Part shown: piece by piece, positions 7,455-8,666 of the stretch
Layout: every line of letters begins with the position of its first letter
Position numbering within the stretch: the first letter of the stretch is position 1
NCBI GenBank assembly: GCA_025057015.1
Contig: JANWYG010000002.1
Span: 1 to 64,000 of the forward strand
Direction of reading: 5' to 3'
Source: Blastocatellia bacterium
GTDB taxonomy: Bacteria > Acidobacteriota > Blastocatellia > Chloracidobacteriales > JADJPF01
DNA: 64,000 nucleotides
Notes under the pieces: model-generated
Databases searched by the model: none
Told to the model about the DNA's origin: nothing
What the model saw: the letters and a program-made list of their open reading frames with translations, nothing else
Made by a program: the position numbers and the translations under genes

Positions 7455-8666
7455 ATGAAGAAGAAACTAATCTCGTTCTTAGGAATAAATAAATATGAAG
7501 AAACGACCTACAAGCTACCTTTAAGTGACCAGAGTGTCAAAACACGATTTTTCGTAGAAGCCGCTGCCGAGTATTGTTCTCCAGACGAGATATTAGTCTT
7601 TGCTACCAAAGAAGCAAAAGACAAAAACGGGAACAAACTCATCCAAACGCTTACCAAATACCATCTTCAACTTGTAGATATCCCTCCCGGAAAGAATGAA
7701 GACGAGCTTTGGAAGATTTTCGAATTGTTGGTCAGCAAGCTAAACGAAAGAGATGAGGTATACTTTGACATAACGCATTCCTTTAGATCGATACCTATCT
7801 TTGTGCTACTCGCTTCGGAATTCTTGCGCGTTGCTAAATCAATCGAGGTAAAAGGCATACTTTATGGTGCCTTCGAGGCAAAGGAAGGAGAAATTGTACC
7901 TACCTTCGACCTATCGCCGTTTGCAGAGATGCTTAACTGGGTAACCGCTACAGACATATTCATTAAATATGGTGATTCCATAGAGCTTGCTAACATACTT
8001 AGTAAACTAAAGAACAAAGCTTGGAGAGAGCGCAAAGGCACTTCGGAGAACTCACCTAGGAAGATGGAAAGGCTAGCTAATACATTAGAAAATCTATCCC
8101 GTTGTCTGCGTTTAATGCGACCACTTGAAATCAAGTCTCCTGCCGAACTTCTCGAAAAGAATCTAGAAGAAGTAAAAGAGGAAACAGCCGTTTGGGCAAA
8201 GCCTTTCACCGTACTTCTGACAAAAGTCAAACAGAAATATGACGAACTGGTAGTCCCCTCACCACTTGAAGCTCAACGCCGCCTTATCTTTTGGTACGAA
8301 GAGCACGGACACTTAGTACAAGCTATAGCGCTTGCTCGCGAGTGGATTGTGTCTTTGGCTTGCGAACTTACCAACATTCCCTCTGACGAAGTTAAAGAGA
8401 GGGGAAAAGTAGAGAAAGTAGTAAATCGTTTTGCTATCGAACAGCGGAATAAAAAAACTGGCAGCGATACAAATATACCCTGCGATGAAAAACTATACGA
8501 AGCCTTTTCAAACCTTCCTCAGGCAAAAGAAATAGCCTCATTGTGGAACGAAATCTCAGACTTACGTAACAACGTCAGCCATTGCGGGATGCGTCAAGAT
8601 AGAGGGGAAGCTGAAGGTATAGAAAAACAGATAAAAAAAGCTATAAAGAAGCTTCGCAAGGTCTAG
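7455..8666 (+). CDS. CARF-HEPN ribonuclease, TM1812/Csx2 (Cas_DxTHG-like) family, without CRISPR neighbours
   Basis: I place the start at the ATG at 7455, because AAGGAGG precedes it at 8-nt spacing and the protein then opens like TM1812-family members (MKKKLISFLG, then a KYEET segment); an in-frame ATG at 7419 lacks a ribosome site. The product has 403 residues. Residues 1-155 form a Rossmann-type CARF domain with 'YFDITHSFRSIPIF' (D105-I-T-H108; the family's DxTHG motif with Ser instead of Gly) and 'GILYGAFEAKEGEIVPTFDLS'. Residues ~155-403 are helical and end in a HEPN RNase motif R371-N-N-V-S-H376. In type III CRISPR systems such proteins bind cyclic oligoadenylate and cleave RNA. No cas gene or CRISPR array lies in the window, so its activator is unknown. 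Confidence 0.85.
   Translation: MKKKLISFLGINKYEETTYKLPLSDQSVKTRFFVEAAAEYCSPDEILVFATKEAKDKNGNKLIQTLTKYHLQLVDIPPGKNEDELWKIFELLVSKLNERDEVYFDITHSFRSIPIFVLLASEFLRVAKSIEVKGILYGAFEAKEGEIVPTFDLSPFAEMLNWVTATDIFIKYGDSIELANILSKLKNKAWRERKGTSENSPRKMERLANTLENLSRCLRLMRPLEIKSPAELLEKNLEEVKEETAVWAKPFTVLLTKVKQKYDELVVPSPLEAQRRLIFWYEEHGHLVQAIALAREWIVSLACELTNIPSDEVKERGKVEKVVNRFAIEQRNKKTGSDTNIPCDEKLYEAFSNLPQAKEIASLWNEISDLRNNVSHCGMRQDRGEAEGIEKQIKKAIKKLRKV

What the first reader, a model, noticed from the sequence alone, without database searches (positions are those of the whole stretch)
7455..8666. Stand-alone CARF-HEPN ribonuclease without CRISPR-Cas
Seen: a 403-residue protein with a DITHS motif (variant of DxTHG) in a CARF-like domain and R371-x4-H376 HEPN motif; no cas gene, repeat array or other defence gene in the 64 kb. 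Known: TM1812/Csx-type CARF-HEPN proteins cut RNA when activated by cyclic oligoadenylate from type III CRISPR complexes. Inference: this copy either works with a distant type III locus, or senses a nucleotide from another source, and so could be an independent abortive-infection or RNA-decay system.
Basis: partly seen in the sequence, partly recalled or inferred. Interest (0 to 1): 0.75.

Follow-up and report, generated by a model that had tools for sequence, protein, structure and literature searches.

The report
Detached Csx1 CRISPR-activated RNase
This is an ordinary Csx1-type RNA-cutting enzyme normally switched on by the alarm molecule of type III CRISPR systems; it looks alone in the 64 kb window, but the same genome carries an apparently complete type III-A CRISPR system elsewhere that can be expected to switch it on.

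Summary
In detail: window 7455-8666 (+) encodes an intact 403-aa CARF-HEPN protein with D105-I-T-H-S-F-R111 and R371-x4-H376. It is a full-length Csx1/TM1812 (CARF2) protein; its predicted fold best matches Marinitoga Csx1-Crn2, whose structure is solved with cA4. "Without CRISPR-Cas" is true of the window only. The genome (3.33 Mb, 97% complete) carries an apparently complete type III-A operon on another contig (Cas6, Cas10 with HD and GGDD, Csm2-5), a decayed type III-B locus with an intact second CARF-HEPN protein, and type I-C and I-E loci with arrays. Relatives lie beside type III effector genes in 66 of 80 loci, and in 33 of 36 with more than 4 kb held on both sides. Acidobacteriota genomes with this protein carry a clear Cas10 in 16 of 18 cases, against 45 of 378 without it. 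Detached relatives are scattered singly on the tree, so no separate CRISPR-free family is visible. Best reading: a detached type III accessory RNase, activated in trans by cyclic oligoadenylate (probably cA4). Signalling between loci has already been proposed (PMC11229360). Rare relatives without detectable type III genes leave a small opening for the novel reading.

The parts
7455..8666 (+). Csx1 (TM1812/CARF2 family) CARF-HEPN ribonuclease, 403 aa
   Evidence: start at 7455 supported by a GGAGG Shine-Dalgarno just upstream of the ATG
7461..7916 (+). CARF sensor domain (about residues 3-154), with D105-I-T-H108-S-F-R111 at about 7767-7787
   Evidence: TIGR02221/TIGR02549 hits; alternating strands and helices in the AlphaFold2 model; domain limits are approximate
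8238..8663 (+). HEPN ribonuclease domain (about residues 262-403), catalytic R371-N372-x3-H376 at about 8565-8582
   Evidence: R371, N372 and H376 invariant in 12 homologues; all-helical in the model; domain limits are approximate

Best explanation
A detached accessory effector of type III CRISPR-Cas. When the Csm complex (encoded on contig C13 of the same genome) meets invader RNA, Cas10 makes cyclic oligoadenylate, which diffuses to this Csx1. The ligand, most likely cA4, binds at the CARF dimer interface (D105/T107/H108/R111) and switches on the HEPN site (R371/H376), which cuts single-stranded RNA nonspecifically, causing dormancy or slowed infection. The gene need not be near the cas operon because the signal is a small molecule. 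Shown here: the family, the conserved sensor and catalytic residues, the predicted fold, an apparently intact type III-A operon in the genome, and linkage and co-occurrence of orthologues with type III. Inferred: RNase activity, the ligand, and the actual signalling in trans.
For: Full-length match to CARF2 CARF_HEPN/Csx1 models. Predicted fold (pLDDT 86.6) best matches Marinitoga Csx1-Crn2, including the cA4-bound structure 8y7g (E 4e-15); the M. piezophila Csx1-Crn2 RNase is activated only by cA4 among cA3, cA4 and cA6 (PMC7293037). SyCsx1 with the same DxTH..R and RxxxxH residues is cA4-dependent, and changes at H117, R120 or H388 nearly or wholly abolish activity (PMC9676260). Own genome: Cas6, Cas10 with HD and GGDD, Csm2-5 contiguous on C13. 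66 of 80 relatives have type III effector genes within the DNA held (up to 10 kb each side), and 33 of 36 with more than 4 kb both sides. Twelve of 13 relatives in the class have a Cas10 match on the same contig. Cas10 (E<1e-8) in 16 of 18 Acidobacteriota genomes with a P0001 match versus 45 of 378 without, Fisher p about 2e-12, ignoring phylogenetic dependence. Detached relatives are scattered on the tree, not a clade. A statistical link between effector-lacking, cyclase-positive loci and genomes with several type III loci is published (PMC11229360).
Against: No direct evidence that the Csm Cas10 makes a cOA species this CARF binds; the nearest CRISPR-linked relatives include type III-B (Cmr) loci rather than III-A. 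No closely related detached orthologue is known, so persistence in the detached state cannot be tested. Two of 18 Acidobacteriota genomes with a relative, and one further genome, show no convincing Cas10 and no RAMP gene.
Confidence: 0.88

Rival explanations
1. A relic of the decayed type III-B system (or of an older one): once served a Cmr complex, now an unlinked leftover without a working partner, drifting towards loss.
For: Several nearest relatives sit directly downstream of cmr6; the genome's cmr locus on C23 is broken into fragments with internal stops; P0001 is on a different contig.
Against: The ORF is intact with all invariant CARF and HEPN residues, while cmr genes are visibly decayed; an intact cyclase-competent Cas10 (III-A) remains, so a signal source exists.
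Confidence: 0.07
2. An independent defence or RNA-decay system: the CARF domain senses a cyclic nucleotide not made by Cas10 and triggers RNA decay or abortive infection without CRISPR.
For: No defence gene near it in the window; G056 (99% complete, gene truncated at a contig edge), G069 (98% complete, 30% identical) and G059 have relatives but no convincing Cas10 and no RAMP gene.
Against: This genome has a type III-A system; strong co-occurrence with Cas10 in the phylum; detached copies do not form a clade; the cA4 contact residues are conserved.
Confidence: 0.04

Closest known systems
Marinitoga Csx1-Crn2 (PDB 8y6z, 8y7g, 8y75; PMC7293037)
   Same: Same CARF2-type CARF plus HEPN fold (best Foldseek and profile hit), DxTHxxR and RxxxxH motifs
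   Different: P0001 lacks the C-terminal Crn2 ring-nuclease domain and lies away from any cas gene; Csx1-Crn2 lies in a type III-B locus
SyCsx1 of Synechocystis (slr7061; PMC9676260)
   Same: CARF-HEPN, same CARF and HEPN key residues by motif; cA4-dependent cytosine-specific ssRNase
   Different: SyCsx1 is encoded in its type III-D locus; P0001 has S instead of G in the fifth place of DxTHG; substrate specificity of P0001 unknown
Csx1 of Blastocatellia relatives (e.g. L034 in G018, 43% identical; L036-L041)
   Same: Same family, alignable over full length
   Different: These lie directly beside cmr (and in L036, L037 and L040 also csm) genes; some carry a further C-terminal domain absent from P0001

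Membership tests
Csx1 / TM1812 (CARF2) CARF-HEPN ribonucleases | N-terminal CARF domain with DxTHG-like ligand motif | tested here: met
   TIGR02221 and TIGR02549 above cut-off; D105, H108, R111 invariant in 12 homologues
Csx1 / TM1812 (CARF2) CARF-HEPN ribonucleases | C-terminal HEPN domain with RxxxxH (R-N-x3-H) | tested here: met
   R371, N372, H376 invariant; helical C-terminal half in the model and Csx1 fold match. Pfam Csx1_HEPN PF09455 gives no hit in the whole genome, so this HEPN domain is outside that one Pfam model
Csx1 / TM1812 (CARF2) CARF-HEPN ribonucleases | Full-length match to family models and fold | tested here: met
   PADLOC PDLC01824 E 1e-118 over 3-402; Foldseek E 2e-15 to Csx1-Crn2
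Csx1 / TM1812 (CARF2) CARF-HEPN ribonucleases | RNase activity activated by cyclic oligoadenylate (cA4 in characterised members) | not testable with these tools
   Needs protein and ligands; only conservation of key residues was seen
Type III CRISPR-associated effector | Type III system in the same genome | tested here: met
   Contiguous Cas6, Cas10 (HD, GGDD), Csm2-5 on C13
Type III CRISPR-associated effector | Encoded beside the cas operon | tested here: not met
   No Cas10, RAMP or Cas1 match lies on contig C6; the csm operon is on C13. Usual but not required for the family: 3 of 36 well-flanked relatives are likewise unlinked
CRISPR-independent abortive-infection system | Consistent presence in genomes lacking type III, or a linked non-Cas10 nucleotide cyclase | tested here: not met
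   16 of 18 phylum genomes with it have a strong Cas10 match; neighbours are amidohydrolases, LTXXQ protein, M16 peptidase, Dus, MurB

The most novel reading that the evidence does not exclude
A lineage of Csx1 proteins has left CRISPR and responds to a cyclic nucleotide from another enzyme; this copy could do so in addition to, or instead of, serving the type III-A system. The evidence does not exclude it because ligand and activity are untested and three genomes with relatives show no convincing type III genes.
Probability: 0.04. Interest if true: 0.75.

Novelty: new member of a known kind. Interest (0 to 1): 0.2.

Why it matters
It shows why a cOA effector can look stand-alone in a 64 kb view: the signal is diffusible, so effector and sensor need not be neighbours. 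This genome (intact csm operon without a CARF-HEPN gene beside it, decayed cmr locus, two intact CARF-HEPN proteins on other contigs) is a natural example of the inter-locus signalling proposed from statistics in PMC11229360, and could be used to test it. If it were CRISPR-independent it would be a new defence pathway, but nothing here supports that.

Tried and rejected
Pfam Csx1_HEPN (PF09455) on the own genome: no hit, uninformative. Single-sequence search of PDB: no relevant hit; only the alignment profile and the fold search worked. Synteny of the neighbouring M16 peptidase in nine relatives: M16 is conserved but none of the other window genes tested is near it, so it does not tell when csx1 arrived. 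sigma-70 promoter scan found nothing, uninformative for this phylum. Weak Cas10 palm hits (E 1e-4 to 1e-6, many covering only about profile positions 52-132) were treated as probable GGDEF cyclases and left out of the co-occurrence test; I did not classify each one. P0003 (L029:432-1349), next to the csm operon, was considered as a linked cOA nuclease: it matches mainly the nuclease part of a CARF-PDDEXK model and no Pfam family, so its dependence on cOA is unclear.

Full report
Observation. Window 7455-8666 (+) encodes an intact 403-aa protein. NCBIfam TIGR02221 (cas_TM1812) scores 128 bits against a cut-off of 76, and the DxTHG domain 39 against 21. PADLOC's CARF2 CARF_HEPN model matches residues 3-402 at E 1e-118. 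In an alignment with 11 relatives, D105, H108 and R111 of the CARF motif and R371, N372 and H376 of the HEPN motif are invariant; the fifth letter of DxTHG is G, A or S among them, so DITHS is an ordinary variant.

Fold and ligand. An AlphaFold2 model (mean pLDDT 86.6, pTM 0.73) matches Marinitoga Csx1-Crn2 best (8y6z E 2e-15; 8y7g with cA4, E 4e-15), then Sulfolobus islandicus Csx1 and Thermus Csm6. M. piezophila Csx1-Crn2 is activated by cA4 and not by cA3 or cA6 (PMC7293037). SyCsx1, with the same motif residues, is cA4-dependent and nearly or wholly loses activity when H117, R120 or H388 is changed (PMC9676260). cA4 is therefore the most likely activator of P0001, by homology only.

Whole genome. 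The window lies on contig C6 of a 3.33 Mb, 97% complete genome in 23 contigs. Contig C13 holds a contiguous type III-A operon: Cas6, Cas10/Csm1 (822 aa, with an HD domain and the cyclase motif GGDD in TYAGGDDLF), Csm2, Csm3, Csm4, Csm5. No CARF-HEPN gene lies beside it among the neighbours scanned; an upstream PD-(D/E)xK-like protein (P0003) matches mainly the nuclease part of a CARF-PDDEXK model. Contig C23 holds a decayed type III-B locus, with fragments of Cmr2, Cmr4 and Cmr6 and internal stops, followed by an intact CARF1-type CARF-HEPN protein (P0005). There are also a type I-C locus with an array at the end of C16 and a type I-E locus on C23. Copies of the I-C-linked repeat also lie at the end of C23, and a near-copy lies a few kb from the csm operon (C13:111107). 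"Without CRISPR-Cas" is thus wrong for the genome.

Orthologues. In Blastocatellia relatives, Csx1 often lies directly beside cmr6; 12 of 13 have a Cas10 match on the same contig. Among 80 loci from genomes across many phyla, 66 have type III effector genes in the DNA held, with a median gap of 249 bases to the nearest one; of 36 with more than 4 kb on both sides, 33 do. Profiles for this step were built here from the relatives, so divergent cas genes may have been missed; the true linkage is probably higher. In 396 Acidobacteriota genomes, a clear Cas10 (E<1e-8) is present in 16 of 18 with a P0001 match and 45 of 378 without (Fisher p about 2e-12, not corrected for relatedness). On a tree of 81 sequences the unlinked copies are scattered singly and show no clustering; P0001 falls in a small, weakly supported group that mixes III-B-linked, other type III-linked and one short-contig row.

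Exceptions. G056 (gene cut by the contig end), G069 (30% identical; next to a protein that by eye looks like a Card1/Can2 nuclease) and G059 have no convincing Cas10 and no RAMP match. G066 has neither, but its genome is small (1.3 Mb) and its locus (L048) lies near a CRISPR array; G065 lacks a Cas10 match but has RAMP genes. These are draft assemblies, so absence is not proven.

Conclusion. The protein is a detached member of the Csx1 family, best explained as an accessory RNase activated in trans by the type III-A Cas10 of the same cell. Signalling between type III loci was proposed for effector-lacking loci in PMC11229360. Activity, ligand and trans signalling are untested here.

Noticed in passing
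L030:9442-17159 (own genome C23, about 161.4-169.2 kb): Decayed type III-B cmr locus in fragments with internal stops, yet the CARF1-type CARF-HEPN gene at its end (427 aa) is intact, as if kept while its Cas10 decayed.
   Followed up: partly
L029:432-1349 (own genome C13, about 123.4-124.3 kb): 305-aa PD-(D/E)xK-like protein upstream of the csm operon, matching mainly the nuclease part of a CARF-PDDEXK model, with a coiled-coil-like N-terminus and no Pfam hit.
   Followed up: partly
L127:5283-8527 (G069): A distant CARF-HEPN gene convergent with a protein that by eye looks like a Card1/Can2 nuclease, on a 10.5 kb contig of a 98% complete genome with no Cas10 or RAMP match: possible cOA effectors without a visible type III complex.
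   Followed up: partly
L043:3-710 (G056): Truncated Csx1 relative at a contig edge beside housekeeping genes in a 99% complete genome without RAMP genes and with only weak, GGDEF-like Cas10 matches.
   Followed up: partly
L036, L037, L040: Type III-A and type III-B operons side by side with this Csx1 family between them or in the III-B part; in L036 and L037, as in L038 and L041, Csx1 carries an extra C-terminal domain with a conserved GQAPIWxYLxxAHALHGKARRL stretch, perhaps a ring nuclease.
   Followed up: no
own genome C16:168861-169166, C23:231942-232394, C13:111107: Same CRISPR repeat family at the ends of two contigs, with a near-copy near the csm operon, which suggests that arrays may be shared between the I-C and III-A systems and that arrays broke the assembly.
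   Followed up: partly
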